Shown piece after piece: positions 30,774 through 45,742 of a DNA stretch of 64,000 nucleotides. Source of the DNA: Bacilli bacterium (lineage in GTDB: Bacteria; Bacillota_I; Bacilli_A; RFN20; CAG-826). The stretch lies in NCBI GenBank assembly GCA_022482735.1, contig JAKVOO010000001.1, positions 677,699 to 741,698 on the forward strand. Direction: 5' to 3'. A program made the position numbers and the translations under genes. Every line of letters starts with the position of its first letter. The first letter of the stretch is position 1. The notes beneath the pieces are model-generated. The model had not been told where the DNA came from, did not search any database, and was given only the letters and a program-made list of their open reading frames with translations.

Positions 30774-32232
30774 AAATCGGGATGAAATATGCCAAGACTG
30801 TCCGTTATCTAACAAAGAACCGGTGATCATAATTAACGAGATATCGCCTTCCCCGCTACAAGCCCGCGTTTTAAACTATACCGGAAATCCGAATGAAGAA
30901 ACTATTGTGTTAAAAGTTCCAAGTCGCGAAAGTTTATTGAGCAACGCCCTTTTTGTCGATAAAGATTTATCTATTAAAAATCGAGCCCGCTTAATTGCCG
31001 ATATCCGTGAGGCTCTCTACACCAACCATCGCGGTTTTATTTTAGGCATTCGCCTTGCTCTTGATGATAGTGAAATTAATCCTCTAACCAAAGATGATAA
31101 ATTATCTTTCCTAAACGCTATCAGCCAGTCGATTATTGAGGCCGGATATGAAAATGTCCTTTTTCGCATTGATGATGACGCTTTAGCTATTAATTTTGTC
31201 GAAGCACCTCGACCGGCGACTTTTAATCGGCTTGAGGATATTTATAAACATATAGCCATTAAAGCCCATCACCTTTCCGAAAAGATATCGTTTAATTTGG
31301 CGTTACTTGAATACCCAACCGATTGTAATGACGCCATTATTTTGGATAAGACCATTGACGACGGCCTAAATAAATCGGCTAAGGTGGGGAAAAATATTCT
31401 TTATATTATTCGCAATCGCGTTTCAAGACCGGCTGATCGCAATGCTTATATTCTTAACTTCTATGAAACGGCAACTAGTCGCAATTACTGGGAATCATAT
31501 GTCCAACCGCTTATCAACCTTGACAATGAGTTTGTAACGGGTGGCGAAATGCTGTTGCGCTTGTATGATCCTAATCGGGCTGGCTTTATTCCACCGAATG
31601 ATTTTGTCGATTTATATAGCGATAATCGTCTAATGTGCGATCAAGAAAAAGCCATTATTCGCCGTGTTGGAGAAATGTGGCGGTCGCTCGGCTATACGTT
31701 ATTTAGAAGCCGAGGTATTGATAGAATTTCGGTTAATATTTCTTTTGACACCATTATCAATAAAGATTTTCATGGTTTCTTAAGTGGCGTTATAAATCAA
31801 TACAAATTTCCGGCTAATTTTTTGCAACTTGAAATTGATGAGGATATCGCTATGCTCCATCAGGATGAAGTACGCGCCTTTATTAAGCGCAATTCCGATT
31901 TAAAGATATCATTTATTTTGGATAACTATACCGGTAGAAACCTTTCACCAAACAGCATTAATTCACTTGGATTCCATTATTTGAAACTTGAGCAGGCCGC
32001 AATTCGTTCTATTGAAAATGACTCTGATTCCTATGTTAATTTTACGCATATGGTCAACCGATTGAAAACTTTGAACCTAGAACTTATCGTTAAAGGGGTT
32101 GAGACTGAACGGCAGGTAAACATTATTAAATCGCTCGGTATTCATTATTGCGAAGGTTACTTTTACGCCAAGCCAATGCCGATTGACGATTATGAAAAAT
32201 ATATTGTTTCAACCGATCAGCAAACTATTTGA
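30700..32232 (+). CDS. Degenerate GGDEF-EAL signalling protein, C-terminal part (frameshifted)
   Basis: Continues the upstream reading frame after the shift: the rest of the PAS domain, a second degenerate GGDEF-like domain, and an EAL domain (about 250-505). The EAL domain has EMLLR for EALLR and keeps SVNIS and the Lys in HYLKLE. The DDFGTG loop is LDNYTG, and the last Glu (family EGVE) is Lys (VKGVE). It should therefore be unable to hydrolyse c-di-GMP and may be a receptor. The ATG at 30700 lies inside the other frame and has no ribosome site, so this is not an independent gene. The stop overlaps the -35 box of riboswitch 1. Confidence 0.75.
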   Translation: MCHRILPVTFPHQPLIGQKCYKVFRNRDEICQDCPLSNKEPVIIINEISPSPLQARVLNYTGNPNEETIVLKVPSRESLLSNALFVDKDLSIKNRARLIADIREALYTNHRGFILGIRLALDDSEINPLTKDDKLSFLNAISQSIIEAGYENVLFRIDDDALAINFVEAPRPATFNRLEDIYKHIAIKAHHLSEKISFNLALLEYPTDCNDAIILDKTIDDGLNKSAKVGKNILYIIRNRVSRPADRNAYILNFYETATSRNYWESYVQPLINLDNEFVTGGEMLLRLYDPNRAGFIPPNDFVDLYSDNRLMCDQEKAIIRRVGEMWRSLGYTLFRSRGIDRISVNISFDTIINKDFHGFLSGVINQYKFPANFLQLEIDEDIAMLHQDEVRAFIKRNSDLKISFILDNYTGRNLSPNSINSLGFHYLKLEQAAIRSIENDSDSYVNFTHMVNRLKTLNLELIVKGVETERQVNIIKSLGIHYCEGYFYAKPMPIDDYEKYIVSTDQQTI

Positions 32233-32333: not shown

Positions 32334-32361
32334 ACATTTGAAGGAACGGCTACCTTTTCTT
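32316..32361 (+). terminator. Riboswitch-1 expression platform terminator
   Basis: AAAGGTAGCC pairs with GGCTACCTTT across 22 bases, followed by TTTTCTT. It shares GGTAGCC with the aptamer and contains the likely Shine-Dalgarno AAGGA in its loop. Confidence 0.85.
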
Positions 32362-33198
32362 ATGAAACTGAGAAACAAGATTCTGACCAGTACTTTGTTC
32401 ATTCTCGGTGTGAGTGCTATCATGCTCACAGGGTTTTCTTATGCCTGGATAAATTCAAATAATAATATCGCAGAAATAAATCTTCATAGCGGTGACGCTG
32501 ATGCCAAAATAAATGGCTTTTTATTTAAGCGTCAAACCAATCAAGATGACAATACTTCAATTTTTCTTAATAATGAGCCGGATATTACGGCCACTCAAAC
32601 GAACTCAGGAAATGGTGAACTATCATTTACGTTTAATGATGATTCCGGAACGGTGTTTTCAACTTTAAACGCTCTAAGTCTATATCACGATGAGAATAGT
32701 ATCAGCGCTCAAGCGATGCCGGGGTACTATGTAGAAATACAGCTTTTTACTACTGTTGAGACTTCGTATATGTCCGCTTCCTTGTCTTACGCCAGTCAAG
32801 CAACAGCCGTCGACTTTTCCCTCTTTACTTATCGCTACACCTCAGTGACTAATAATATCAACTCGCCACTGGCCTATGCGGCACCGTCTATTATTAACAC
32901 TTTAGCTAGTAGGTCTTTGAACCCACTTTTTCAAACCGAAGTCAGTCAAAGTGAAATTATCACTTTAACCGATGAAGCTAACGGAAATGCCTATTTTACT
33001 AATACGATTTCTACCGCCGATCAAGCATTTTATAAAACGCACTTTTGCCGGAGTATTATCGTTGAGGTGATGCCGGATCCGATCGCCTTAATCAGTTATT
33101 TTAAGAATAATCCAAGCGTGAGCTATGATGATTTTTCGATTGGCTTCTCTTTTAATTTATCGGTTGGTTTTTCCTTAAACCCAATTGGAGGAAATTAA
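32362..33198 (+). CDS. Secreted protein with SipW/TasA-type signal segment (1)
   Basis: A 278-residue exported protein. The N-terminus MKLRNK plus a hydrophobic stretch ends in GFSYAWINSNN, resembling TasA/camelysin signal segments cut by SipW-type peptidases. The mature part is Ser/Thr/Asn-rich and beta-strand-like, with no Cys-rich or enzymatic motif. The ATG at 32362 immediately follows the terminator T run; a TTG at 32338 would lie inside the riboswitch terminator and is unlikely. First gene under riboswitch 1; probably a minor or base subunit of a surface structure. Confidence 0.82.
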   Translation: MKLRNKILTSTLFILGVSAIMLTGFSYAWINSNNNIAEINLHSGDADAKINGFLFKRQTNQDDNTSIFLNNEPDITATQTNSGNGELSFTFNDDSGTVFSTLNALSLYHDENSISAQAMPGYYVEIQLFTTVETSYMSASLSYASQATAVDFSLFTYRYTSVTNNINSPLAYAAPSIINTLASRSLNPLFQTEVSQSEIITLTDEANGNAYFTNTISTADQAFYKTHFCRSIIVEVMPDPIALISYFKNNPSVSYDDFSIGFSFNLSVGFSLNPIGGN

Positions 33199-33199
33199 A

Positions 33200-35560
33200 A
33201 TGAAAAAGCGCACCCGTCGGCAGGTAACGGGTCTTGCCTTTTCGCTTATAGTCGGACTTTCCGCCTCAGTAGTTGGTATGACATACGCGGCATATGTATA
33301 TAACCGTCGTTATTCAACCCCGATTGAATATAACATTGGCCACCTCTCATCCTATTTTGCGGGCGGCAGCGGTGTTTCGGCGGCACCATATATTATTGAA
33401 ACGCCCGAGCAAGTTCGAAACTTACAAAAATTAAATATTTACGGTGTTTTTAATAAAGACACCTATTTTAAACTTAGTGATAACATTCCTGAAAATGGTA
33501 TGGACTGGGATGGTGAATCTCTTGCACCGATTGGTTCCGAAGATTATCCCTTTTATAGCAATTTTAATGGCAATGGTAAAATCATCAACAATCTTGTAGT
33601 CGATGGCTCTCAAACCAGCGATATCGGCATGTTTGGCTATGTCACCATGGGAGCAAGTGTCGCCAATTTAGTTTTAGCTTCTCCCACCATTAATGTAACA
33701 AATGAAAACAACCCTACCGCCGCCTCTACAACCAACCCGTTGGCTTCGGTTTTTAGCGGAACCGATGGGGCCGCTAGTCTTGAAATAAGTTTGACTACAC
33801 GTACCAGCAGTTCTAATCTCGCTCATTTTACAGTCAACAAGACTGGTTTAAATGCCAATGGAGTAAATTACTCGATAATATATGAAAGTTCCAATGAAGA
33901 TCTTCTCTATCAAACCGCAAATAACATTTGGTATACCAAAGTCCCGAACAACGCTGTAAGTGGTAAATTATATCCCGTTCAACTGTCAGCAAAAGTTTTT
34001 GCCCTTTACGATAATAAAGTTATTTCTTACACTCTCGAACGTTGGGAAATAAATGTCGAATACAACGGTGATGTTAGCGTCGGCAATATTGCCAATGGCG
34101 AATATCCTGGTTTTTTTAAAACTTTGCATGCCACTAGTCTATTTGGACCTCATGGGACTTATGTAGGCTTTTTGATCGGTCATCTTGACGGAACTGCAAA
34201 TAGTCTTGGCGTTTACGGTGGCAATGAGTTAAATACGGCCGTTAATACAAATAATGCCAAAATTATGGTTCACGGTCGCCAAGTGATGTCTTACAGCAGC
34301 TTAATTGGTCGCACTTTAAATGATAATGTTTACGATGATGCCAATGCCAACTTTGATCGTAAATACTTTGATTTTGATAAGATTATCCGTGCCAATATTG
34401 CCGGTGGAGTCAGTGGAGGGACATATGCCATCCCTAATCCTAGCAGTTATTTGTCGACTGACTATTCATCCGTTATTAATAACGTTGCCGTTCAAGCTTC
34501 CACCTATTATGGATTGAATTCTGAAGAGGCATCTTATCTTCGTTTTTATCCAGGATTATCAAACGGCAGTGTGGCTTATTCTTCCGGAGAAGGCAGTGTA
34601 TCTAGTTATGCTTTAAGTATAGCTAATGCTCCCTTATCAGCGAGCGTTCGTAGCGATAAAGGCAGCAGTTACAATAAAAATACCAATTTTTTCCTCCGAA
34701 ATGGCATATGGCTTTGGCTAAATGCCGGGTCGGAGCAACGGACGATTGATTTGTTTAGCGACGAAGCATTTACCGTCATTATTAAAATAACTTATGTGGC
34801 TACCGGTTCAACAAACAATTATTTTCAAATTCTCTTTAATAAGTATAATCCCAGTCTGAGCTATCGGAAGGTTCGTAACGATCACTGGAACAATTTAAGC
34901 AGTGCCACTGATAGTAGCGGTAATTACGTATACGATGCAACTGCCCATCCTTTAATTATGAATGATGGCCAGGGAAATTCTTCATCCGGTCAACTGGTCT
35001 CCCAACAATTAAGCTTTACTGTCAATAAATCTGACTCTTTTTGGGATGGCTTGTTTTCGGATAATTATGGTGGTTTACTGACTACCGACTTTTGGAACTA
35101 TTTCTTTGGAACATATTATTTAATGTTTGGCATTGGTGTCGGTTCAACGATGGAAACGAGCAATAGTGACTACACAACCAATAGTACAGGAAGAATTTTA
35201 TATTCAAACGAGAGTTTCTATTACGAGCCCTTTTCTTTAAATATAATTGGACTCGATATCTATTTTACTTCTGTAAATGGTGATTTAAATCGTCAAGTGA
35301 CAAATGTTGATTTCCTTTATGATATGCCTACTTATGAAAACGGTGTATATACGGCCTGGAATAGTGATAGCAACGTTAAAATAAAATTTACTGTTGGATC
35401 ATCGATGAACAACTCTTCCTTGAATGCGACCTATAACTACTATCGAACTAATACTGGTGGTTACTCTGGAACAGCTGTCCACGTCAAATATACCGGTAAC
35501 ACGGGATATAGTTTTGAACCATCAAATACTGATGGATATAACGAGGCGGTGATTGATTAA
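33200..35560 (+). CDS. Large secreted adhesin-like protein (GLUG-type segment)
   Basis: A 786-residue surface protein. The basic N-terminus (MKKRTRRQV) and hydrophobic stretch end in GMTYAAYVYNRR, as in the neighbours. Residues about 60-150 read YIIETPEQVRNLQKL...YPFYSNFNGNGKIINNLVVDG...DIGMFGYV, the layout of GLUG/beta-helix repeats seen in bacterial adhesins. The rest is Asn/Ser/Thr/Tyr-rich without Cys. No LPXTG or membrane anchor is seen at the C-terminus, so attachment is likely through the other fibre proteins. The ATG has TTGGAGGAA upstream, inside the end of the previous gene. Confidence 0.82.
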   Translation: MKKRTRRQVTGLAFSLIVGLSASVVGMTYAAYVYNRRYSTPIEYNIGHLSSYFAGGSGVSAAPYIIETPEQVRNLQKLNIYGVFNKDTYFKLSDNIPENGMDWDGESLAPIGSEDYPFYSNFNGNGKIINNLVVDGSQTSDIGMFGYVTMGASVANLVLASPTINVTNENNPTAASTTNPLASVFSGTDGAASLEISLTTRTSSSNLAHFTVNKTGLNANGVNYSIIYESSNEDLLYQTANNIWYTKVPNNAVSGKLYPVQLSAKVFALYDNKVISYTLERWEINVEYNGDVSVGNIANGEYPGFFKTLHATSLFGPHGTYVGFLIGHLDGTANSLGVYGGNELNTAVNTNNAKIMVHGRQVMSYSSLIGRTLNDNVYDDANANFDRKYFDFDKIIRANIAGGVSGGTYAIPNPSSYLSTDYSSVINNVAVQASTYYGLNSEEASYLRFYPGLSNGSVAYSSGEGSVSSYALSIANAPLSASVRSDKGSSYNKNTNFFLRNGIWLWLNAGSEQRTIDLFSDEAFTVIIKITYVATGSTNNYFQILFNKYNPSLSYRKVRNDHWNNLSSATDSSGNYVYDATAHPLIMNDGQGNSSSGQLVSQQLSFTVNKSDSFWDGLFSDNYGGLLTTDFWNYFFGTYYLMFGIGVGSTMETSNSDYTTNSTGRILYSNESFYYEPFSLNIIGLDIYFTSVNGDLNRQVTNVDFLYDMPTYENGVYTAWNSDSNVKIKFTVGSSMNNSSLNATYNYYRTNTGGYSGTAVHVKYTGNTGYSFEPSNTDGYNEAVID

Positions 35561-35561
35561 T

Positions 35562-36377
35562 ATGAAAAAAATTAATTCTACATCAAGGCTAAAAACCCGG
35601 CTTGCCGTAACTTTAGTCGCTCTAGCTTTTTCACTAACATCATTATTTTATATTTCTTATGCTTGGTTTCAGTTTGTTCGAAGTAAGCAAGTTGAGGTAA
35701 TGGACGTAAGTGTTCCGCAAGGCATTGAGTATTCTTTAAAGTACTTTGTTGGAAATGGAGAAAATGGTTACCCTGGTCCCGATATGTTTTCTAACGACAC
35801 CAACGCAAGCGTGACTGATTATGAAAATGACTTTTTACCGGTTCCTGAGAATTATGGTGAAAACTATACCTTCTTAAAAGAACCCGGCTATCGTCAAACA
35901 TTTGCCATCGAATTATCCAGTGATTTGAATTTCCCCCAGAATATAAATCTTGCTCTTTCAGAATTTACATCCGTCGCCTCTTTAAGTCGCTTTAATAATA
36001 ATTCCCAAGAAGGCATTAGATTAGCAGAAGCTATTAACATATATATTGCCGATATCAATGGTGCCGATACAAATAGCGCTATAACTTCGGAGGCTAATAC
36101 TTTTGTGCAATCACAAAATCCCCCCGGCGGTGATCTGTTTGATGGCAGTGATCAGACTCATATTCTGGCAACATCGACTCTTGGCGGAAGTTCGTCGCAA
36201 AAGAAAATCTTCCTCTTGACCATCGAATTCAGTGATACCAGTGATACCTACTATTCATTTGATCATACCGATAGTGGGATAGACTATTACAATAAATCCA
36301 TCACCGGCAATTCAAATGTTTATCAGAATTTGGAATTTGTCATTAACAAACTAGAAATAACTACGATTAATGAATAA
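35562..36377 (+). CDS. Secreted protein with SipW/TasA-type signal segment (3)
   Basis: A 271-residue exported protein whose signal segment ends in FYISYAWFQFVRSKQVEV. The YAWF block followed by a short basic turn and beta strand is shared with the protein at 36631. The mature region is acidic and Asn-rich, ending NLEFVINKLEITTINE, reminiscent of the final beta strand of camelysin-like folds. It begins one base after the upstream stop and ends the riboswitch-1 operon. No known catalytic motif. Confidence 0.8.
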   Translation: MKKINSTSRLKTRLAVTLVALAFSLTSLFYISYAWFQFVRSKQVEVMDVSVPQGIEYSLKYFVGNGENGYPGPDMFSNDTNASVTDYENDFLPVPENYGENYTFLKEPGYRQTFAIELSSDLNFPQNINLALSEFTSVASLSRFNNNSQEGIRLAEAINIYIADINGADTNSAITSEANTFVQSQNPPGGDLFDGSDQTHILATSTLGGSSSQKKIFLLTIEFSDTSDTYYSFDHTDSGIDYYNKSITGNSNVYQNLEFVINKLEITTINE

Positions 36378-36380
36378 TTA

Positions 36381-36408
36381 AAGACTCTCTTGTAGAGAGT
36401 CTTTTTTT
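36381..36408 (+). terminator. Intrinsic terminator of riboswitch-1 operon
   Basis: AAGACTCTC, TTGTA loop, GAGAGTCTT, then seven T. Confidence 0.95.
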
Positions 36409-36455
36409 CACAATTTGTCCACCCAAAAACTTTTGTAAAAAAATATTCAAAATAC

Positions 36456-36483
36456 TTGCATATATTTTTAACTGGACTATAAT
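36456..36483 (+). promoter_or_regulatory. Promoter of the fibre-subunit candidate gene
   Basis: TTGCAT, 16 bases, TATAAT. It gives this gene a transcript independent of both riboswitches, with a leader of about 140 bases. Confidence 0.65.
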
Positions 36484-36530
36484 GATGTTGCTTTTGAAAA
36501 CAATTATTGCCCCCTCAATGATTGCAATAT

Positions 36531-36621
36531 AATTAGCGAAATTGCCCGTTAATTATCATCTAAGTCCCATTAACTTAGGTGCCAACCCCTTCAAAATTAT
36601 GAAGGGAGAATCCAGAGGAGG
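36531..36621 (+). promoter_or_regulatory. Structured 5' leader with three hairpins and strong ribosome site
   Basis: Three stems in a row: AATTAGCG/CGTTAATT (one G-U), CTAAGT/ACTTAG, and CCCTTCA/TGAAGGG, ending nine bases before AGAGGAGG. I recognise no riboswitch class. It may stabilise an abundant mRNA or be an unknown regulatory RNA. Confidence 0.5.
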
Positions 36622-36630
36622 ATTTTTATC

Positions 36631-37524
36631 ATGGATAAGAAGAATAAGATTTTATTGTCGTCTGTCGCTTTATTACTCGTCAGCGGAACTGCGGTTACTG
36701 CTGGTACCTTTGCTTGGTTTACTACCGTTCGGTCTGCGACCATCAGTTATTCATCTGCGACTGTGAAAACGAATAGCGGTAACTTGATTGTTGCTTACAA
36801 GTCTTCACTAAATACCCTTGCTGTTAATGATGCCACTCCAGGTGTTATTGCTCTTGCCGGTGCCAACAAAGTTACCGATATTTCGGGAGATGGCGTTTCT
36901 TTCTATAAACCAGTTTGGAATGCTCATGACACCGACAGAACCCTAGCTGATAGCATTGAGGATGTCTCTTCAACTGCCGATGGCAATTTTATTGACTTTA
37001 CCGTCACTATTTCTCGGACCAACGTTGATCCAGAAACAAATGGTATGTATGTCTATCTTGGTCAAGACACATCGATTTCCGCTGTTGATCCTGGCAACCC
37101 AGCCGACGTTGAAGCTGCCAATGCCGCTCGTTTAGCCGTTGTTAACTATGACGATAGAACTTCTGAAGGAACCGCTGCTACCAACTTCATTTGGGCGCTA
37201 AATCCAGATGCTAATTCACAATATATTTCTTTGGCTGAGACTGGCACTAGTGCTTATGGGGTTGATGGCTACCAATTAACAAGTGTTACTGCTGATAATG
37301 ATGGCGACTTACTCTATAGTGGAGCAATTAAAAATGCCCCAACTCCAGCCAGTTCTGTGTTACCGAAGATTGCTGATTTATCCTTTGATGGCGCGACTCC
37401 GTTGATTACCGAGGATATTACTTTCCGGGTTTGGCTTGAAGGAGTTAAAGTCCAAAACTCGGCCAGAGGTGGCGTGTTTAAAGTTAACCTTGACTTATAC
37501 GCCCTTGAAGTTGCCGCCGCTTAA
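36631..37524 (+). CDS. TasA/camelysin-like major fibre subunit candidate
   Basis: A 297-residue secreted protein with the clearest TasA-like start in the locus: MDKKNKILLSSVALLLVSG..., ending in AGTFAWFTTVRSATISYSS. AWFTT is the motif after which SipW-type enzymes act. The mature domain is beta-rich with the conserved-looking C-terminal strand ITFRVWLEG, also found near the end of the protein at 38395, and a final Ala-rich tail. Own promoter, long structured leader, AGAGGAGG site and immediate terminator all suggest high expression, as for a main structural subunit. Family assignment is by motif; TasA itself polymerises into biofilm fibres. Confidence 0.83.
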   Translation: MDKKNKILLSSVALLLVSGTAVTAGTFAWFTTVRSATISYSSATVKTNSGNLIVAYKSSLNTLAVNDATPGVIALAGANKVTDISGDGVSFYKPVWNAHDTDRTLADSIEDVSSTADGNFIDFTVTISRTNVDPETNGMYVYLGQDTSISAVDPGNPADVEAANAARLAVVNYDDRTSEGTAATNFIWALNPDANSQYISLAETGTSAYGVDGYQLTSVTADNDGDLLYSGAIKNAPTPASSVLPKIADLSFDGATPLITEDITFRVWLEGVKVQNSARGGVFKVNLDLYALEVAAA

Positions 37525-37540
37525 TTAGAAAATATTGCTT

Positions 37541-37588
37541 AAAAACTGGAGTTTCATTGGATTTTCATTTGACACTCCAGTTTTTTTT
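37541..37588 (+). terminator. Intrinsic terminator after the fibre-subunit gene
   Basis: AACTGGAGT pairs with ACTCCAGTT over a 21-base loop, then eight T. Some read-through would feed the two-helix membrane protein gene that follows. Confidence 0.85.
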
Positions 37589-37636
37589 ATGTAGTATTAG
37601 TTGACGAAATGCGTTTTTATTTAGGAGCATTTAATA

Positions 37637-38029
37637 ATGAGTACAGAAAATGATGCCTCAAAGAAAAGCGGTTGGTTAAGAATTGGCTTAACTATCGGTG
37701 AGATCGTCCTAATTGCTTTTCTGTTAACCGTCTCGATTATTGCGATGACGACAGTTGGTAGCGCTAGCGGAAGCACCAATCCCTTTATGGGTTTCATAAA
37801 GTGGTTGCAACTAAATCCTTTGTTCTTTTTCCTGTTAATTGTTTTCCCCCTGATATTGATTTTCCTATTTAACATCTACTTGCTAATTAAGAATTTGAAT
37901 GACAAAAATGAGAAAGCAAAACTAACCATGAGTAAGGAAGAATTGCTGGAAGAAGCAAAGCGCCAAGCTCGGGAAGAAGTTTTAACAGAGATAGCAAAAC
38001 AACAAGCTCAAAATCAAGAAAAAAAGTAG
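37637..38029 (+). CDS. Two-helix membrane protein with charged cytoplasmic tail
   Basis: A 130-residue protein with two membrane helices (about 14-38 and 53-83) and a 45-residue Lys/Glu-rich tail (KEELLEEAKRQAREEV...) likely to form a coiled coil in the cytoplasm. I do not recognise a family. Its place inside the surface-fibre locus and its similarity in design to the tails of the DUF2357-like protein and the signal-peptidase region suggest a scaffold role. TTAGGAG precedes the ATG. Confidence 0.75.
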   Translation: MSTENDASKKSGWLRIGLTIGEIVLIAFLLTVSIIAMTTVGSASGSTNPFMGFIKWLQLNPLFFFLLIVFPLILIFLFNIYLLIKNLNDKNEKAKLTMSKEELLEEAKRQAREEVLTEIAKQQAQNQEKK

Positions 38030-38040
38030 TTGAATCCTAG

Positions 38041-38074
38041 CAAAAAGCAGTCATAAAAAGTGACTGCTTTTTTG
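38041..38074 (+). terminator. Intrinsic terminator before riboswitch 2
   Basis: AAAAAGCAGTCA pairs with TGACTGCTTTTTT. Its T run ends one base before the next -35 box, so the two units are tightly packed. Confidence 0.92.
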
Positions 38075-38102
38075 TTGACAATTGTTTCAATTGATATATA
38101 AT
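38075..38102 (+). promoter_or_regulatory. Strong sigma-A promoter of riboswitch-2 operon
   Basis: TTGACA, 16 bases, TATAAT, with the aptamer starting 14 bases later. Confidence 0.85.
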
Positions 38103-38115
38103 TGTTCTTGACAAA

Positions 38116-38187
38116 GGCAAAACTAGAGAAATCTAGCGACGCAAAACTAAAGGACCTGTAGCGGATAGCGATGGTAGCCAGTTGCCG
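38116..38187 (+). ncRNA. Cyclic di-GMP-I (GEMM-I) riboswitch 2
   Basis: GGCAA pairs with TTGCC to close the aptamer. Helix CTAGA/TCTAG has a GAAA tetraloop, followed by GCGACGCAAAAC, GGACCTGTAG and GGTAGCCAGTTGCC. The core is very similar to riboswitch 1 but the joining arm and expression platform differ. It leads the six-gene operon carrying the AAA+ ATPase, signal peptidase and phosphodiesterase. Confidence 0.92.
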
Positions 38188-38192
38188 TACGG

Positions 38193-38247
38193 AATAAAAA
38201 AGATTTGATCGATTCCGGGCAATGATTGGTTAACATCGATTTTTTTA
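38193..38247 (+). terminator. Riboswitch-2 expression platform
   Basis: ATCGAT plus flanking A run pairs with ATCGATTTTTTTATT with a small bulge. In addition GGGCAA at 38217-38222 can pair with the aptamer's closing TTGCC, offering an alternative fold. Aptamer closure and this pairing exclude each other, as expected for a switch. Confidence 0.65.
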
Positions 38248-38394
38248 TTTCCATGGGGTCTCGTCAATCGTTAAGAATGATGAGAGGCAGCCAAACGAAA
38301 TTTATCCGCGTAGTAATGGAACGCAGAAAGATGGAGTTGGCAAGAAAAGGTCTATCTTTTCTATCTTTTGTCGTAACTTGAAAGGATAATCGAT
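38248..38394 (+). promoter_or_regulatory. Long leader after riboswitch 2
   Basis: A 147-base leader separates the riboswitch platform from the ATG at 38395. It can form a CTCGTCA/TGATGAG arm and holds GAAAGGA as ribosome site. It contains an open frame of 42 codons without a ribosome site, which I do not count as a gene. Confidence 0.35.
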
Positions 38395-39546
38395 ATGGGA
38401 GCACCAAGCGAATTACTTAAGAACCGCAAGCGCGCCAAAAAAGCCCGCACCCTGCTGGCCATATCGGCAAGCCTGCTGGTTACATTTGTAGTTATTTCTT
38501 ATGTGGGAGCAACAGTCGCTCGCTATCTAGCGAATTCAACGACCGTGGCTTTTTCTAACAAATCAACTGGTGATGCCAATTTGATGAAAGTTGGTTTTCG
38601 TGTCCAAGAGCCCATCGGGGAGAGTGAGTTAGAAACATATCACCTTACTAGCGATTCGAATAATTATGCTGGTGGAGGCTATGTTTATTGGAGCGATTTA
38701 TCCGTGGGAGCCAAAACGATGCAATACATCGTTAGCCATGAGGGCTATTCGGCTTCGAACACAGTAAAGCCTATCACTAGTAAAAGATTTCAAACCGGCG
38801 ATGAAATTAGTTTATATGATCGTCCGTCCAGTAATAGTGCAACCTATACCCGAGTTGTTGACTTTTCGAGTGAAGCCAATAAGAGTGACTATATCGCTTT
38901 TGATATTCTCTTTAATGTTGGTGTCATTCGTCAAGATGAAACTGTATCTGGTGTAGCAAACAACGCTATATATTTTGACAACGATACGGCTTTTGCCGGC
39001 AAGAACAACATTACCCAGGCTCTTCGCCTTGGGTTTGAAAGTGCCTATACCTCGGATATTATCAGTCCGGGAAGGAATGAAAAGGGTTCGATAGCGGTCG
39101 GTGGTCGGATGGATTTAGACGAGGATGGCTATTTTGATTTTACGAGCGATCCAACTCTACTTGAAGATGGGGAAATTGATGAAACTCTTTATGAGATTGC
39201 TTATGGTGATTTTGTCGATGATTTAACCGATGATAGTTGGGGACTAGCTGAAAATGAAGACATTCCCGCAGACACAAGCGAAGTTGCCTTCTATAACGGT
39301 AGCACCAAATCTGGTGTTCGTCCTTTAACTAATGCTATTCCAGCGACAGCGCACTACGACAAAATCAGCACTTATCAACAGAACACTGGCAATATGCCAA
39401 TTGCTGTAACCGATGAAAACGGCATTGCTGAGGTGAAAATTAAAATTTGGCTAGAAGGCTGGGATCATGCTTGCACGAATCTTCTTGTTTCAGGAACTTT
39501 TGGTGCGCAGTTAAAGTTTATTTCTTCACCACTTACTTCTAATTAA
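38395..39546 (+). CDS. Secreted WLEG-motif surface protein
   Basis: A 383-residue exported protein, first in the riboswitch-2 operon. Very basic N-terminus (KNRKRAKKARTL) and a hydrophobic helix ending in SYVGATVARYLANST. The mature acidic domain ends in EVKIKIWLEGWDHACTNLL, matching the RVWLEG strand near the end of the TasA-like protein, so both probably share one beta-sandwich fold. An anchor or cap subunit is plausible. GAAAGGATAATCG lies before the ATG. Confidence 0.82.
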   Translation: MGAPSELLKNRKRAKKARTLLAISASLLVTFVVISYVGATVARYLANSTTVAFSNKSTGDANLMKVGFRVQEPIGESELETYHLTSDSNNYAGGGYVYWSDLSVGAKTMQYIVSHEGYSASNTVKPITSKRFQTGDEISLYDRPSSNSATYTRVVDFSSEANKSDYIAFDILFNVGVIRQDETVSGVANNAIYFDNDTAFAGKNNITQALRLGFESAYTSDIISPGRNEKGSIAVGGRMDLDEDGYFDFTSDPTLLEDGEIDETLYEIAYGDFVDDLTDDSWGLAENEDIPADTSEVAFYNGSTKSGVRPLTNAIPATAHYDKISTYQQNTGNMPIAVTDENGIAEVKIKIWLEGWDHACTNLLVSGTFGAQLKFISSPLTSN

Positions 39547-39575
39547 TTGTTGCCCTTTAATTTTTTAAAGATAAT

Positions 39576-39618: not shown

Positions 39619-41160
39619 ATGAGTAATTTCTTTAGTTATATTCGGGATTTATTTACTGCCCTTTTTCGTAATTTAGGGGACTTTTTCTATACCGGTATAA
39701 TTAAACCATGGACCTTCGTAGGTAGCGACTTTTCAGAATATGATGCCATTCTTCGTACCTATTTGGACGGATTTGGCATTTGGGGATGGATGCTATTTGT
39801 TCTCTTCCTTTTAATTGTGGTTTCTATTATTGGCCTTCTTGGTTATATGCTATATCTGCTAATTTATCGTGTCGTAAGAATCGGTCGTAACGATATGACG
39901 AGATCCAAAATGCTCGCCCAAATTCAATCTCTAAATGACCAGTTATATGCCGCGGTGATGGAGAAAAACGAGATTTTAAAACTGAAGGTCGGGTCCTTGG
40001 GAATCAATCCCAACAGTTCATCACTTAACCCCGATGGAACTTCCCGGGATGAGGAAAATAAAGTTAATGATTCGATGTTCCCAAAATTGGCGATGATCGA
40101 TAAGAAATACCAGGATTATCATCCGCGAGTGGATTCGCCAGATATGGATGCCAATATCTCATTAGAGGAGCTTTCTGCTCGCTTTCGTCTTTTTGCCGCC
40201 TCACAACTTGGACTTTATTATGAGACTTCGATGATTAGAACTGTATTCGCTGCTTTAGGCACGAGCCGGCTATTGATTCTTGAAGGCATATCTGGTACCG
40301 GTAAAACTTCCTTGCCTTATGCTCTAGGCAAATTTTTTCAAAATGATGTCCAAATATGCTCAGTTCAACCTTCGTGGAGAGATCGGAGCGAACTAATTGG
40401 TTACTATAATGAATTTACTAAAAAATTCAATGAGACCGATTTTTTAAAAGCGGTCTATGAAGCCACTTATCGTGAGGACAATTGCATAATTATTCTCGAT
40501 GAAATGAACTTAGCTCGGGTAGAGTATTACTTTGCAGAATTTCTATCTATCATGGAAATGCCTGATCCAAGTGAATGGAAAGTTGAGGTTACCAACACCC
40601 CCAGTGCGGATAATCCCCGTCATCTTGAGAATGGTAAATTATTGATTCCCCAAAACTTATGGTTTTTTGGAACGGCCAATAATGATGACTCGACTTTCAC
40701 CATTACCGACAAAGTTTACGACCGGGCGATGTCTTTACAGTTAAATAATAAGGGCGTGGCTTTCGATGCAGAATTTACTGAACCGGTGGCTATAACTTAT
40801 AACTATTTAGCCCAACTTTATAATGAAGCGCAAACAAACTATCCTGTTTCTGAAGTTAACTTGGGTCGTTTTGCTAAATTGGACACTTTCGTTATCGCCA
40901 AGTTTCATATCGCCTTTGGCAACCGGATTATGAAGCAATTGAAGCGTTTTGTTCCTAATTACGTCGCCTGTGGAGGCACTGAATTAGAGGCATTAGACTT
41001 TATATTTTCAAGTAAGGTTTTAAAGAAATTTTCCGCCCTTAATCTCGCTTTCTTGCATGAAGAGTTAAAACAACTTGCGACCGAATTAGAAAAACTCTTT
41101 GGTAAGAACACTTTTAAATTATCCAATCAAGTCATTGATGATTTCATTAAGATGAGTTAG
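39619..41160 (+). CDS. Membrane-anchored McrB-like AAA+ ATPase
   Basis: A 513-residue protein with a strong membrane helix near residues 50-75 and a linker to the AAA+ domain. Walker A is GISGTGKTS (about residue 222), Walker B is CIIILDEMN (about 295), and sensor-1 is WFFGTANND. The ILDEMN...V.YYF.EFLS.ME pattern is typical of the McrB/MoxR-like branch. McrB proteins normally work with a nuclease (McrC), but here the gene sits between secreted-protein and signal-peptidase genes and is membrane-anchored. So a role as motor or chaperone for surface assembly is more likely than DNA restriction; this is inference. ATG with GAAAGGATACTT upstream. Confidence 0.85.
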   Translation: MSNFFSYIRDLFTALFRNLGDFFYTGIIKPWTFVGSDFSEYDAILRTYLDGFGIWGWMLFVLFLLIVVSIIGLLGYMLYLLIYRVVRIGRNDMTRSKMLAQIQSLNDQLYAAVMEKNEILKLKVGSLGINPNSSSLNPDGTSRDEENKVNDSMFPKLAMIDKKYQDYHPRVDSPDMDANISLEELSARFRLFAASQLGLYYETSMIRTVFAALGTSRLLILEGISGTGKTSLPYALGKFFQNDVQICSVQPSWRDRSELIGYYNEFTKKFNETDFLKAVYEATYREDNCIIILDEMNLARVEYYFAEFLSIMEMPDPSEWKVEVTNTPSADNPRHLENGKLLIPQNLWFFGTANNDDSTFTITDKVYDRAMSLQLNNKGVAFDAEFTEPVAITYNYLAQLYNEAQTNYPVSEVNLGRFAKLDTFVIAKFHIAFGNRIMKQLKRFVPNYVACGGTELEALDFIFSSKVLKKFSALNLAFLHEELKQLATELEKLFGKNTFKLSNQVIDDFIKMS

Positions 41161-41170
41161 GTTAATTTAA

Positions 41171-42646
41171 ATGACAAAAAAAGTAGAGAAAAAAAAGGTC
41201 GCAACCAGCAAAAAAGAAAAGACTAAATCACCTTCAAAAAAGAAGAGAAAAAGATTAACTCCGGTTGAAAAGGTAAATCGGATGAAAGATAAATATACAC
41301 GTCAATTGACGCGTATTATTTTGCGTAATCGTGATTTACGTGAAGTATATAACTTAATCAGTACGAATAAAGATAATACTTTCAGTGGGCTTTCTCGCAC
41401 GGAAACTAAAAAGTATAATGTTGATTTTGTAGAAAAAATTGAAGAAAAATTGCCGGCGATTGAAAAGGTCGTTCAAAATCCGCGCCGGTTTATAAATGAA
41501 ACGCATGAAATAGTTCCAATTGAGAATGCCAAGCGTATCACTCCAACCGCTGTTCGTCATCTTGGTCAACATAGCGAGTTTATTAAATCTGTCAATCCCG
41601 ATGGAACGGTTATGCCGGAAAAAATTTTGAACTCCTTTACTGAAGACGAACTTGCCATCTACGAAAACCGCTTTATTATGACCTTAATTAGACGGCTTCA
41701 AGTTTTTATCGAACTTCGTTACAAGTACATTATGGACCATGGCGATACGCAAAACAGTGATATTATCAAAATGTCAACCCAAGTGGTTATCGGTGGCGCC
41801 ACTTATGAATACACTGGTCAACTAAAACAGGTTATTCCTAGTGATGACAATGGAGAACGCAGCGCTAATGAAGATGTCTTAGTTCGTCTCAAAGAGATTA
41901 GACGGCGGGTTATGTTTTTAGCAAGTTCGCCATTTATGATCATGATGAATAAGGCTGTGCCGGTCAAAGATCCAATTCAGCAGACCAATATTATTCGTAT
42001 GAACCACGACTATCATGATTCATTTTTACTTTGGTCTTACATAAGCCGTTACGACGAACTTGGCGTTTCTTACTCAATAAAACAAAAGAAGAATATATTT
42101 AGCGAAGAGTATTTGAAGAATCTTCATAGTTTAATGGTGGCCTCTTATCTTACCTTAAGTACCGAGAATGCACGACCTATTGAACGCGGAACTCGCGCCT
42201 ACACAATTAAACCACGTTTTACGGATATTCCTGAAGGCATTATTGCTGGTGATGAACGCTTTTTAGACACCGATTTTGCCTTTGCCTTGGTTGCCAAGCC
42301 AAAGTCCGCCAAGCAGATTGCTCTCGAAAAGAAGCGTAAGGAAGCTAAAGAACGTCTTATTGAAAAACGTCGTAAGGAAAAAGAGCAGGCAGAAATTAGA
42401 AAACAAAAAGAAAAAGAAAGAATTTTTGCTAAAAAAGAAGCTGATCGGCAACGGAAATTAATGCAAAAAGAAGAAGCCCTAGAAAAGAAACGATTGCTAC
42501 TTGAGGCCAAAAAGAAAGCTGCTTTAGAAAAGAAACTGGCTCAAGAAGAGGCCGCCCGGGTGGCAGCGATTAACAAGGAAGAGCAACGTAAATTAGAAGA
42601 GGCCAAAAAGAAAGTTAAGGTTAAGGCCGAAAAGGCTCGTGAATAG
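41171..42646 (+). CDS. DUF2357-like protein with long Lys/Glu-rich coiled-coil tail
   Basis: A 491-residue cytoplasmic protein. The Lys-rich head (1-40) leads into a domain with DELAIYENRFIMTLIRRLQ and PIQQTNIIRMNHDYHDSFLLW, which resemble DUF2357-type partners of McrB-like ATPases. The last 110 residues are almost entirely Lys, Glu, Arg and Ala and should form a long charged coiled coil. I see no PD-(D/E)XK nuclease motif. It lies ten bases after the ATPase gene, so the two probably act together. The domain name is by eye and needs profile confirmation. Confidence 0.72.
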   Translation: MTKKVEKKKVATSKKEKTKSPSKKKRKRLTPVEKVNRMKDKYTRQLTRIILRNRDLREVYNLISTNKDNTFSGLSRTETKKYNVDFVEKIEEKLPAIEKVVQNPRRFINETHEIVPIENAKRITPTAVRHLGQHSEFIKSVNPDGTVMPEKILNSFTEDELAIYENRFIMTLIRRLQVFIELRYKYIMDHGDTQNSDIIKMSTQVVIGGATYEYTGQLKQVIPSDDNGERSANEDVLVRLKEIRRRVMFLASSPFMIMMNKAVPVKDPIQQTNIIRMNHDYHDSFLLWSYISRYDELGVSYSIKQKKNIFSEEYLKNLHSLMVASYLTLSTENARPIERGTRAYTIKPRFTDIPEGIIAGDERFLDTDFAFALVAKPKSAKQIALEKKRKEAKERLIEKRRKEKEQAEIRKQKEKERIFAKKEADRQRKLMQKEEALEKKRLLLEAKKKAALEKKLAQEEAARVAAINKEEQRKLEEAKKKVKVKAEKARE

Positions 42647-42650
42647 TTAT

Positions 42651-43253
42651 ATGAATCAATCAACTGCCACAACGAAGAAAAAAAGCAAAGTTGGAACAAT
42701 CATTTCCTGGATTTTAGGAAGCTTGATTGCTCTATTATTTGTTGTGGAAGCATTAGGTTTTATTACCGCGCGTAGCAATTATGGTGTCCCAAATTTCTTC
42801 GGTTACCAAACAATGACCGTTTTAACTGATTCAATGGAACCTGTTATGCCTGTTGGTGTCGGAATTGTCGTGCAAAAAGTTGATGTCACAACTCTAAAAG
42901 CATCCAGTGAAATTGAGAATCACGATGGGGATATTATTTCTTTTTATAACCCCAACGCTAAAGTTATAATTACGCATCGTATTATCGATATTAGTGTTGA
43001 TGGTAACGATAATTATACTTTTTATACTCTTGGTGATAACTTGGAAGCCGAATCTTGCTATGTCAATTTTGGCCACGCTTGCGATTACAGTAACTATGAT
43101 ATCGTTCCCGAAAAATATGTTTTAGGCAAAGTGATTGAAGTATCAAAGCCTATTGGCGTTGCTTACCAAACTTTATCCAATGTCTACCTTTTTCCGATCG
43201 TGGTTTTAATTCCTCTACTTTGGGTATTTATTTCGGCAATGAAGATATTATAA
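42651..43253 (+). CDS. SipW-like (ER-type) signal peptidase I
   Basis: Cleaves the signal segments of TasA/camelysin-like proteins at the membrane. An N-terminal helix (about 15-38) is followed by TVLTDSMEPVMPVG with the nucleophile Ser, then VIITHRIIDI, where His replaces the Lys of ordinary bacterial LepB. This Ser-His pairing defines the SipW/archaeal type. A C-terminal helix ends at SAMKIL. The open frame just after (43220-43456) encodes a charged tail that probably belongs to this protein if one missing base is restored. It starts four bases after the DUF2357-like stop, so translation is probably coupled. Confidence 0.92.
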   Translation: MNQSTATTKKKSKVGTIISWILGSLIALLFVVEALGFITARSNYGVPNFFGYQTMTVLTDSMEPVMPVGVGIVVQKVDVTTLKASSEIENHDGDIISFYNPNAKVIITHRIIDISVDGNDNYTFYTLGDNLEAESCYVNFGHACDYSNYDIVPEKYVLGKVIEVSKPIGVAYQTLSNVYLFPIVVLIPLLWVFISAMKIL

Positions 43254-43456
43254 AGGGCGTTAAGGAGGAAGATACTCCTACAGGTGCTAACGAAAATCGG
43301 CAAAAAAATGATAATATAAGTGATGATGATGAGTTTGAAGATATGAAGCAAAGAGAGAAACTACGCATATTGATTGAGATGGAAAAAGAAAAATTGCGGC
43401 AGGAAATGAATATAGAAAACAGGGAAGAACAAGATGAAGAAAAAAGAAAAAAATAA
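43220..43456 (+). CDS. Charged coiled-coil tail, probably the frameshifted C-terminus of the signal peptidase
   Basis: A 78-codon frame rich in Lys/Glu (DDDEFEDMKQREKLRILIE...). It only has a TTG start lying inside the signal-peptidase gene, with no ribosome site before it. Inserting one T in ATTATA at about 43249 would read MKILLKGVKEED continuously. I therefore favour a frameshifted tail over an independent small protein. It runs on to overlap the start of the EAL gene and contains that gene's ribosome site. Confidence 0.5.
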   Translation: MGIYFGNEDIIKGVKEEDTPTGANENRQKNDNISDDDEFEDMKQREKLRILIEMEKEKLRQEMNIENREEQDEEKRKK

Positions 43457-45017
43457 AAAACTTGGCAGCCGCAGTCTTCACCATATGCGGCCACTTAATA
43501 TCATCATTATCATATCTTTTCTTGTGCTCATTGGAGCGGTAGTAAGCGAGACTTTATTACTAATGAAAATAAAGTTTGCGATGCCCTCTTCCGTAAGTAA
43601 TATTTTCTGGTGGACCGTAGTGATTGCCTTTGCCTTGCTTTTATCCGTACATGCTATCATTATTGCCTTTTATCAAAAACGCATTTACTCCAGTCAGATG
43701 CGCTTCAATTACGATACATTTGCCACGATACGTGACGTGTTTAATGAACACAAATTTTTAAATGCCATTAACACTCGTTACCGCCATAGTCACTTCAATT
43801 ATGCCATTATCAGTTTTTCTGTCTACCAACTAAAAAGAGAGATTTTCTCGCACTATGGTTATGCTGTCGGATCCAAAATTACCGGCATTGTTTTTCAGGC
43901 AATTGAAAACTTATGGCTTAATGATCGGCGTTTAATTTATGGCTATGATTACAATGAAAACTTCTTATTAGCTATTCCTTACGTTCAAGAAGGCGAAATA
44001 CGCGAGTTGACTGACAGTGTTACCTCCGAGGTTGATACCCGCCTAGAACAAAACGGGCTGGCAGCAAAATCCAGTTTCTTTTTTGGAACCTGCTTTTCTA
44101 CCGATAAAAAAACAACCGCTGCTGAGATGCTTCAACATTCGTTAATTGCTGGAGATTTTTCTCGAATCAATAATGAACGACCCGGATTAAAAATTTACGA
44201 AGAAAATATGTTTAATACAATGGCGGCAAATGTTCATTTAGCTGATGAAATTATCCGCGGATTAAACGATCGGGAATTTGAAGTGTTTTATCAACCAAAA
44301 TATGATTTAAATCTCAAGCGTTTTATTGGTGCCGAAGCCTTACTTCGGTGGCATCACCCAACCAAAGGATTATTAACTCCCGCTGCTTTCATTCCTTTTG
44401 CGGAGCAATCAGATTTAATTTTACAAATTGACCACTACGTTTTTGACACCGTCTGCCAGGACATTACCGCCTGGAAAAATAAACGGGAAAGACTATTGCC
44501 GATTTCAATTAACTTTTCTCGACGGACGTTATTTCAAACTGATCTGGTTGGATTCGTATCAAGCAAAATTAATGAGTACAAGGTTAATCCCATGTTGATT
44601 GAGGTCGAGATTATCGAATCGCCGGCTTCACGGGATGTTCTATATTTACTCTCCTTAATTAAGCAATTTAAGGCTATGAAAATCAAGGTTGGAATCGATG
44701 ACTTTGGAACTGGATATTCGTCACTAAGCTACATTAAACGTCTTCCTTTTGATACGATCAAAATCGATAAAGTGTTTTTGGATGACATCGAAATTGACGA
44801 AAAATCACGGGAAATTGTCTCAACCATTGTCCGCTTAGCGCATATCCTTGAAGCTTACATCGTCGTTGAAGGTGTGCAAGAGTATAAACAGGTCCAACTC
44901 ATGAAGAAAATTGGTGTTGACTGTATACAAGGTTACTACTATTCTCGTCCGCTCTCCCCCGAGCAATATTTAACGTTTCTAAAGACTAACCGTTTTGAAA
45001 AGAGGGCCAAAAAATGA
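43434..45017 (+). CDS. Membrane c-di-GMP phosphodiesterase (EAL)
   Basis: Hydrolyses cyclic di-GMP. Two N-terminal membrane helices, a middle region resembling a degenerate GGDEF domain (about 100-260), then a complete EAL domain: EALLRW, SINFSRR, EVEIIES, IDDFGTGYSS, TIKIDK, VVEGVQE and QGYYYSRP. All the metal-binding and catalytic acidic residues expected in active enzymes are present, in contrast to the degenerate copy at 30.7-32.2 kb. It sits in the riboswitch-2 operon, so it is produced when c-di-GMP acts and would lower it again. ATG preceded by GGAAGAA. Confidence 0.94.
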   Translation: MKKKEKNKKLGSRSLHHMRPLNIIIIISFLVLIGAVVSETLLLMKIKFAMPSSVSNIFWWTVVIAFALLLSVHAIIIAFYQKRIYSSQMRFNYDTFATIRDVFNEHKFLNAINTRYRHSHFNYAIISFSVYQLKREIFSHYGYAVGSKITGIVFQAIENLWLNDRRLIYGYDYNENFLLAIPYVQEGEIRELTDSVTSEVDTRLEQNGLAAKSSFFFGTCFSTDKKTTAAEMLQHSLIAGDFSRINNERPGLKIYEENMFNTMAANVHLADEIIRGLNDREFEVFYQPKYDLNLKRFIGAEALLRWHHPTKGLLTPAAFIPFAEQSDLILQIDHYVFDTVCQDITAWKNKRERLLPISINFSRRTLFQTDLVGFVSSKINEYKVNPMLIEVEIIESPASRDVLYLLSLIKQFKAMKIKVGIDDFGTGYSSLSYIKRLPFDTIKIDKVFLDDIEIDEKSREIVSTIVRLAHILEAYIVVEGVQEYKQVQLMKKIGVDCIQGYYYSRPLSPEQYLTFLKTNRFEKRAKK

Positions 45018-45742
45018 TTTTAATTTTGGGAAATAATGCGGATGATATCATCTATATTAAAACAAAAATGGATATTGAACGGGTTGATGAAATTGCTTTA
45101 AATCACCCTGTTTATGTTGGAGTCTACTCAGGCAAAGACATTGTTTTAACCTATACCAAGCCCACCAACACTGTCTCATCCATAATCACTGCACTTTGCA
45201 TCGAAAAATATCGTCCTTACATTGTCATAAGCATTGGCAGCGTTAGCGCTTATAACGAAATTCTTCATCAAGGAGATATTCTCCTTGTAGAAAGAATTTA
45301 TAATGGAGATGTCGATTTAACCACTTTTGGTAATGTTAAATATGGACAAATAGTCGGCCTTCCTGAGTTCTATACATCGGAAGATGATTATATTTCGATG
45401 GTTGAAACCATCAATAGTCGCAGCATTAATCATAACATTCATCGCGCATCGCTAATTTCAACCAATAAGTTTTATACCAGTAAAGAAGCCGCTAATGAGT
45501 TAATTAATCTTCACTTTGCCGCTGTTGACCGAATTGGTGCTTTTGACACCGAATTAGGCGGAATTGCTAGTGCCTGTGCTGTCTTTGACACCCCTTGGTT
45601 AGCGATTAAATCCGTCAACTATGTTATCGGTCACGATAATGAACTTTTGACCTTTGTCCGCAAGGGCATCGAAAATGAACCGATTGTTGGCTCGCTAATT
45701 AGTTCCCTATTTAATAATCTTATTTATTCGATTGAAAATTAA
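45014..45742 (+). CDS. MTAN/nucleoside phosphorylase-like protein
   Basis: A 242-residue cytoplasmic protein of the PNP/UDP phosphorylase superfamily: PYIVISIGSVSAYNEILHQGDILLVERIYNGDVDLTTFG and GAFDTELGGIASACAVFDTPWLAIKSVNYV. These resemble 5'-methylthioadenosine/S-adenosylhomocysteine nucleosidase, although the usual SDxAD catalytic end appears as KSVNYVIGHD, so activity or substrate is doubtful. It overlaps the phosphodiesterase gene through ATGA, a tight translational link that suggests a joint nucleotide-related task, perhaps in c-di-GMP or pGpG turnover (speculative). Confidence 0.75.
   Translation: MILILGNNADDIIYIKTKMDIERVDEIALNHPVYVGVYSGKDIVLTYTKPTNTVSSIITALCIEKYRPYIVISIGSVSAYNEILHQGDILLVERIYNGDVDLTTFGNVKYGQIVGLPEFYTSEDDYISMVETINSRSINHNIHRASLISTNKFYTSKEAANELINLHFAAVDRIGAFDTELGGIASACAVFDTPWLAIKSVNYVIGHDNELLTFVRKGIENEPIVGSLISSLFNNLIYSIEN

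What the first reader, a model, noticed from the sequence alone, without database searches (positions are those of the whole stretch)
39619..42646. McrB-like AAA+ with a membrane helix plus a DUF2357-like protein that lacks a visible nuclease
McrB-type ATPases normally feed a nuclease partner. Here the ATPase has a transmembrane helix before the AAA+ domain, and its partner has a 110-residue Lys/Glu coiled coil where a nuclease might be expected. The pair lies between secreted-protein and signal-peptidase genes. This suggests a defence-type ATPase module repurposed for envelope work.
Basis: partly seen in the sequence, partly recalled or inferred. Interest (0 to 1): 0.75.

Follow-up and report, generated by a model that had tools for sequence, protein, structure and literature searches.

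The report
Membrane McrB-type motor with nuclease-less partner
A molecular motor pair related to a DNA-cutting phage-defence system sits in the membrane without its DNA-cutting part, in a conserved operon for exporting surface proteins; it belongs to a kind ('CoCoPALM') that one 2024 paper named in a single paragraph but did not analyse.

Summary
39619-41160 encodes an McrB-type AAA+ NTPase with one N-terminal transmembrane helix and an intact active site (NxD variant motif). 41171-42646 encodes a true DUF2357 protein (Pfam 34.7 bits, cut-off 23.3) without a detectable nuclease: after the DUF2357 core come a low-confidence linker and one ~110-residue charged helix. Some orthologs are only 362-376 aa, leaving no room for a nuclease. 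The 'coiled coil' is better described as a charged single helix.

The pair sits in a conserved operon. In 80 named loci (Bacilli, Mycoplasmatota, Clostridia) the ATPase is adjacent in 79, a SipW/ER-type signal peptidase homolog is nearby in 78, and SipW-type secreted proteins and EAL proteins recur. No nuclease family recurs. Relatives with DUF2357 plus a PD-(D/E)XK nuclease exist, but their ATPases lack membrane helices and branch apart.

Best reading: a membrane-anchored, McrC-N-activated motor serving export or assembly of SipW-processed surface proteins. The envelope role is well supported by context; the mechanism is inferred. Bell et al. 2024 (eLife RP94800) named this architecture CoCoPALM, so it is a member of a named but uncharacterised kind. 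Additions here: partner core, inferred topology, synteny statistics, and two further nuclease-less membrane variants.

The parts
39619..41160 (+). Membrane-anchored McrB-type AAA+ NTPase, 513 aa (ORF extends upstream to a TTG at 39547)
   Evidence: orthologs 50-62% identical over full length
39790..39852 (+). Transmembrane helix (residues 58-78), predicted N-out/C-in, followed by a conserved helical stretch (about residues 95-125)
   Evidence: K+R 0.24 before vs 4.2 after in 17 orthologs
40285..40311 (+). Walker A GISGTGKTS (residues 223-231)
40489..40509 (+). Walker B IILDEMN (residues 291-297)
40669..40692 (+). Sensor-1 / signature GTANNDDS (residues 351-358): NxD variant instead of E. coli McrB NTAD (NxxD)
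   Evidence: definition in Bell et al. 2024
41171..42646 (+). DUF2357 (McrC N-terminal-type) partner without nuclease, 491 aa
41261..42160 (+). Structured DUF2357-like core, residues 31-330 (Pfam PF09823 match residues 88-192, IYENRF motif)
   Evidence: AF2 pLDDT mostly 80-96; PF09823 34.7 bits
42308..42640 (+). Charged single alpha-helix tail, residues 380-490, variable among orthologs
42639..43253 (+). SipW/ER-type (Ser-His) signal peptidase homolog; S65, H113 invariant in 62/62
   Evidence: NF046067 1.2e-16
38395..39546 (+). Secreted/anchored protein directly upstream (family at -2 in 31 of 80 loci)
36631..37524 (+). SipW-substrate-type secreted protein (GTFAWF N-terminus); family in 40 of 80 loci
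35553..36377 (+). Secreted protein with SipW-substrate-like N-terminus (YAWF)
33185..35560 (+). Large secreted protein (791 aa), homologs in operons of relatives
32338..33198 (+). Secreted protein with N-terminal hydrophobic segment, same run of genes
37637..38029 (+). Small membrane protein (homologs in 15 of 80 loci)
43434..45017 (+). Membrane EAL (c-di-GMP phosphodiesterase-type) protein; EAL-family proteins in 42 of 80 loci
   Evidence: PF00563 3e-63
45014..45742 (+). MTA/SAH nucleosidase-like protein; at +3 in 25 of 80 loci
   Evidence: TIGR01704 77.3 bits, cut-off 73.8

Best explanation
It is a CoCoPALM-type module: a membrane-anchored McrB-type AAA+ NTPase and its McrC-N-like (DUF2357) activator, dedicated to biogenesis of surface proteins processed by a SipW-type signal peptidase. 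Shown by sequence: one TM helix with N-out/C-in charge bias; an intact NTPase site of NxD type; a DUF2357 partner with no detectable nuclease and a charged helical tail; a tightly conserved operon with a signal peptidase whose Ser-His residues are intact, SipW-type secreted proteins and often an EAL protein. Inferred: the ATPase forms a ring on the cytoplasmic face of the membrane; DUF2357 docks in or on the ring and stimulates NTP hydrolysis, as McrC does in McrBC; the power stroke, instead of driving DNA into a nuclease, remodels or hands over surface-fibre precursors at the membrane next to SipW, with the charged tail as a spacer or docking arm and EAL coupling the process to c-di-GMP. Envelope role about 0.8; this specific motor mechanism about 0.4.
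For: 79/80 loci have the ATPase at -1 and 78/80 a signal-peptidase homolog (70 at +1, 30 also at -2), all on the same strand, across Bacilli, Mycoplasmatota and Clostridia. In the family, 77/92 partner genes have the peptidase within 4 kb downstream, and presence of the two genes is associated (80 both, 6 and 18 alone, 92 neither; Fisher 3e-29, not corrected for phylogeny). ATPase, partner and peptidase distances are tightly correlated (r 0.88-0.92; permutation maximum 0.11). Active sites of ATPase and peptidase are conserved. No nuclease cluster recurs in the neighbourhoods. The partner is widespread (107/196 genomes of the family), unlike nuclease-bearing relatives in 58 near genomes (PF04411 in 1, PF10117 in 2). 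DUF2357 with PDDEXK_7 is detected when present and then the ATPase has no TM (L203, L204). Bell et al. 2024 describe the same association.
Against: No experiment exists, and no complex was modelled (monomer prediction only). The surface-protein fold could not be determined (model pLDDT 44, Foldseek not significant), so 'fibre' or 'pilus' is inferred from SipW-type signal peptides and context; the SipW-substrate HMM hits only weakly and below cut-off. 15/92 partner genes lack a detected peptidase nearby (at least 7 abut a contig end). The tight distance correlations could reflect shared descent of a linked operon without physical interaction. EAL is not universal. PADLOC's candidate-defence model PDC-M26A matches the ATPase, although it matches every NxD-type ATPase tested, with and without nuclease partner.
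Confidence: 0.72

Rival explanations
1. It is a membrane-tethered anti-phage (CoCoNuT-like) system in which the ring senses phage attack at the envelope and the surface proteins or tail are effectors.
For: The closest described systems (CoCoNuTs, McrBC) are predicted or known restriction systems. PADLOC lists a candidate defence model matching the ATPase (5.5e-39).
Against: No nuclease or HEPN cluster recurs in the neighbourhoods; operon order is near-invariant across classes with co-varying distances; it occurs in about half of the genomes of the family rather than in a few. The PADLOC match is shared by all NxD ATPases tested.
Confidence: 0.1
2. The ATPase/DUF2357 pair is a regulator or chaperone (MoxR-like), for example controlling the signal peptidase or c-di-GMP enzyme, and does not act on surface subunits itself.
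For: The conserved +1 signal peptidase and +2/+3 EAL and nucleosidase-like neighbours fit a signalling cassette. Bacterial MoxR/AAA_5 ATPases commonly act as maturation chaperones (general knowledge).
Against: EAL and nucleosidase genes are present in only a subset of loci, whereas the peptidase is nearly universal. This would still be an envelope role.
Confidence: 0.15
3. It is a relic: a decayed restriction system that lost its nuclease and persists by hitch-hiking in a surface-protein operon.
For: The nuclease is absent and the C-terminal tail is variable in length.
Against: The active site is invariant or nearly so in 49 sequences and the ATPase is 50-62% identical between genera; the pair is retained across classes.
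Confidence: 0.03

Closest known systems
[quoted passage not shown] Bell et al. 2024 eLife RP94800, PMC11090510)
   Same: NxD-type McrB GTPase/ATPase with N-terminal TM plus helix; McrC homolog with charged or coiled helix; linked signal-peptidase gene thought to serve pilus assembly.
   Different: The paper gives one paragraph in its main text and no mechanism. The FtsB homology it states for the N-terminus was not recovered by Pfam here; if the AAA+ domain is cytosolic the topology (N-out) would be opposite to FtsB. The coil is dispensable in some orthologs.
CoCoNuT (coiled-coil nuclease tandem) systems, Bell et al. 2024
   Same: NxD McrB-like NTPase, DUF2357 partner, coiled or charged helices; nuclease often lost in McrC.
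   Different: The paper says that when the McrC nuclease is missing, an HEPN or other nuclease is always adjacent; none is found here. CoCoNuTs are not tied to signal peptidase.
E. coli McrBC type IV restriction system
   Same: AAA+ motor plus DUF2357-type activator encoded in tandem.
   Different: E. coli McrB has NTAD (NxxD), no TM, and a methyl-DNA reader domain; McrC carries a PD-(D/E)XK nuclease, absent here.
DUF2357-PDDEXK_7 + AAA ATPase pairs (L203, L204)
   Same: DUF2357 domain; NxD-type ATPase next to it.
   Different: They have the PDDEXK_7 nuclease and no TM; separate branch (99/97) in the tree.
tapA-sipW-tasA operon of Bacillus subtilis
   Same: SipW signal peptidase next to its secreted fibre-type substrates.
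   Different: No McrB/DUF2357 pair there (general knowledge); secreted proteins here are not TasA family by sequence.

Membership tests
CoCoPALM | McrB-type NTPase with NxD (not NxxD) signature | tested here: met
   GTANNDDS in the window and GTAN-x-DDS in most clade members where the motif was matched; E. coli MNTADR
CoCoPALM | N-terminal TM plus coiled/helical segment fused to the NTPase | tested here: met
   TM in 17/17 orthologs, conserved helix after it
CoCoPALM | The N-terminal domain is homologous to FtsB | tested here: inconclusive
   No DivIC/FtsB Pfam hit in 10 N-termini; one FtsL hit at 12.5 bits, not significant
CoCoPALM | Associated signal-peptidase-family gene | tested here: met
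   78/80 loci; 77/92 within 4 kb in the family
CoCoPALM | McrC homolog with coiled-coil extension (usual, not universal) | tested here: inconclusive
   110-residue charged helix is present but shows no heptad pattern above shuffles; absent in some orthologs of 362-376 aa
CoCoPALM | Same clade as the paper's CoCoPALM sequences | not tested
DUF2357 (PF09823) | Score above Pfam gathering cut-off | tested here: met
   34.7 vs 23.3 bits on residues 60-330; 14/18 orthologs match
McrBC restriction system | PD-(D/E)XK nuclease on the McrC partner | tested here: not met
   No PDDEXK model hits the partner or 17 orthologs; positive controls L203/L204 hit PF04411
McrBC restriction system | Modified-DNA recognition domain on McrB | tested here: not met
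   Only TM plus helix N-terminal to the AAA+ domain; no Pfam reader domain
CoCoNuT | Nuclease (PD-(D/E)XK or associated HEPN/other) in the operon | tested here: not met
   No nuclease in the scanned operon proteins and no recurrent nuclease cluster in 80 loci

The most novel reading that the evidence does not exclude
McrB/DUF2357 without nuclease is a general class of membrane protein-handling motors, present in at least three membrane architectures (1-TM with SipW-type peptidase; 4-TM with an ABC transporter-like pair; 12-TM stand-alone with zinc-ribbon partner), in which the NTPase works on exported proteins rather than on nucleic acid.
Probability: 0.4. Interest if true: 0.8.

Novelty: new member of a known kind. 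Interest (0 to 1): 0.55.

Why it matters
AAA+ motors of the McrB type are known mainly as restriction or defence machines. A nuclease-less, membrane-bound pair co-inherited with a signal peptidase across Bacilli, Mycoplasmatota and Clostridia would show that the McrB/McrC-N activation mechanism was used outside nucleic-acid defence, and would supply an energy source for SipW-type surface-protein assembly. It also warns that defence-gene finders (PADLOC PDC-M26A) flag this housekeeping-like family as candidate defence. No NxD NTPase has been characterised (Bell et al. 2024), so this is a directly testable open question.

Tried and rejected
Single-protein scan of genome contigs found no relatives; the alignment query found 163. 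PDB profile search with the partner gave only chance hits. Foldseek of the partner model gave no match at E <= 0.001; the 110-residue helix dominates the TM-score, so this is uninformative rather than evidence of a new fold. AF2 of the secreted protein was low confidence (pLDDT 44); its best Foldseek hit, FimA pilin (E 0.03, prob 0.33), is not counted as evidence. The SipW-substrate model TIGR04088 was weak and below cut-off. FtsB/DivIC homology was not recovered. The PADLOC hit was considered as evidence for defence and rejected because every NxD-type ATPase tested matched it. E. coli McrB as tree outgroup is on a branch too long to root the tree, so the ancestral state (defence or envelope) is left open. 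Literature searches for a CoCoPALM follow-up found only the naming paper and its preprint.

Full report
Observation. The ATPase (39619-41160, 513 aa) has one strong transmembrane helix at residues 58-78 and then a conserved helical stretch before the AAA+ domain. In 17 aligned orthologs the 15 residues before the helix carry on average 0.24 Lys/Arg and the 15 after it 4.2, which by the positive-inside rule puts the AAA+ domain in the cytoplasm. The AAA+ domain is McrB-like: the PDB profile search finds E. coli McrB (E 0.001) and NCBIfam finds the McrB model (6.8e-5). Walker A, Walker B and the sensor-1 motif are invariant or nearly so in 49 sequences. The sensor reads GTANNDDS, the NxD form that Bell et al. 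2024 define for a large branch of McrB-like enzymes, unlike E. coli NTAD.

The partner. 41171-42646 encodes 491 aa. The full-length Pfam scan was empty, but the core alone (residues 60-330) matches PF09823 DUF2357 at 34.7 bits against a cut-off of 23.3, as do 14 of 18 orthologs. The AlphaFold2 model (18 sequences) is confident for residues 31-330, poor for 338-377, then a single helix 380-490. It shows no mixed alpha/beta PD-(D/E)XK domain after the core. As a positive control, two DUF2357 proteins of the same class, L203 and L204, match PDDEXK_7 at 9.5e-52 and 7.4e-27. Orthologs in one subclade are 362-376 aa (L207, L208, L213, L214), so DUF2357 alone suffices and no nuclease could fit. The tail is rich in Lys and Glu (net +18) with ion-pair periodicity above shuffles but no heptad pattern: a charged single helix rather than a proven coiled coil.

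Neighbourhood. Upstream lie five secreted-protein genes with N-terminal hydrophobic segments (32338-39546), several with the YAWF/FAWF pattern of SipW substrates, plus a small two-helix membrane protein. Directly downstream is a SipW/ER-type signal peptidase homolog with invariant Ser65 and His113 (62/62), then an EAL-domain membrane protein and an MTA/SAH nucleosidase-like protein. In the bacterial family the DUF2357 partner occurs in 107 of 196 genomes and 23 of 35 genera. 77 of 92 strong partner hits have the peptidase downstream within 4 kb, at least seven of the 15 exceptions abutting a contig end, and presence of the two genes is associated (Fisher 3e-29, not corrected for phylogeny). 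A profile search of named genomes gave 80 loci in Bacilli, Mycoplasmatota and Clostridia including Christensenellaceae: ATPase adjacent in 79, signal-peptidase homolog in 78, EAL family in 42, secreted-protein families in 31-45, no recurrent nuclease family. One locus, L139, is titled Omnitrophota but matches L138 in scores and lengths and looks like binning contamination. Distances of ATPase, partner and peptidase correlate at 0.88-0.92.

Relatives with a nuclease. In 58 near genomes PDDEXK_7 occurs in one and McrC (PF10117) in two, so restriction-type relatives are rare and patchy while the window's type is common. In the class-wide DUF2357 search and fetched neighbourhoods four architectures appear: no-TM ATPase with DUF2357-PDDEXK_7; 1-TM ATPase with nuclease-less DUF2357 and signal peptidase; 4-TM ATPase with nuclease-less DUF2357 next to an ABC-type P-loop protein and usually a 12-TM protein; 12-TM ATPase with a 520-aa partner, with a zinc ribbon in the copy checked (one copy in the window's own genome, L033). 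In these loci TM anchoring and nuclease presence exclude each other. In the tree the 1-TM type is one group (94/93), the nuclease type another (99/97). Rooting is unreliable because of long branches.

Known or new. The architecture was named CoCoPALM in Bell et al. 2024 (PMC11090510): NxD McrB-like NTPase fused to a TM/coil domain, with coiled-coil McrC homolog and a signal peptidase presumed to serve pilus assembly, left for a later paper. No follow-up was found. The window locus meets the listed features except that FtsB homology was not recovered, the tail is not clearly a coiled coil, and direct placement with their sequences was not possible. It is filed as a member of a named, uncharacterised kind.

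Mechanism. Shown: membrane anchoring by prediction, intact NTPase motifs, DUF2357 activator-type partner, no detectable nuclease, operonic linkage to a signal peptidase with intact catalytic residues. Inferred: ring formation, stimulation by DUF2357 as in McrBC, action on SipW-type precursors, regulation by c-di-GMP. Confidence is about 0.8 for an envelope role and about 0.4 for the specific motor mechanism. A defence role is given 0.1.

Noticed in passing
G000:C1:560247-564296 (L002; L033 8087-12362): The same genome has a second McrB-like ATPase with about 12 predicted TM helices (903 aa) next to a 525-aa DUF2357-like protein with a zinc ribbon; the same pair recurs in other families of the class (L194-L199). 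No signal peptidase or nuclease was seen next to it.
   Followed up: partly
L206, L209, L210, L211, L212: A third nuclease-less variant: 4-TM ATPase plus short DUF2357 protein beside an ABC-type P-loop protein, usually with a 12-TM protein, and several single-TM proteins.
   Followed up: partly
window 45014-45742: MTA/SAH nucleosidase-like protein conserved at +3 of the operon in 25 of 80 loci; also a weak match to the Spiroplasma fibril protein Fib. Its role in a surface-protein operon is unexplained.
   Followed up: no
window 29205-32232: Two overlapping ORFs (522 and 510 aa) match one ~1,000-aa GGDEF/EAL-type gene of relatives; the gene looks split by a frameshift here (real or assembly error).
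   Followed up: no
L046 7702-11628; L116 6556-11346: Very long partner proteins (1,308 and 1,596 aa); the L046 tail contains repeats of a domain with the motif SGKHIKLNLALDP...RVRSDLS, of unknown function.
   Followed up: no
L139: Record titled Omnitrophota carries a locus with the same hit scores and protein lengths as L138 (Tenericutes MAG); probably a mis-binned contig.
   Followed up: no
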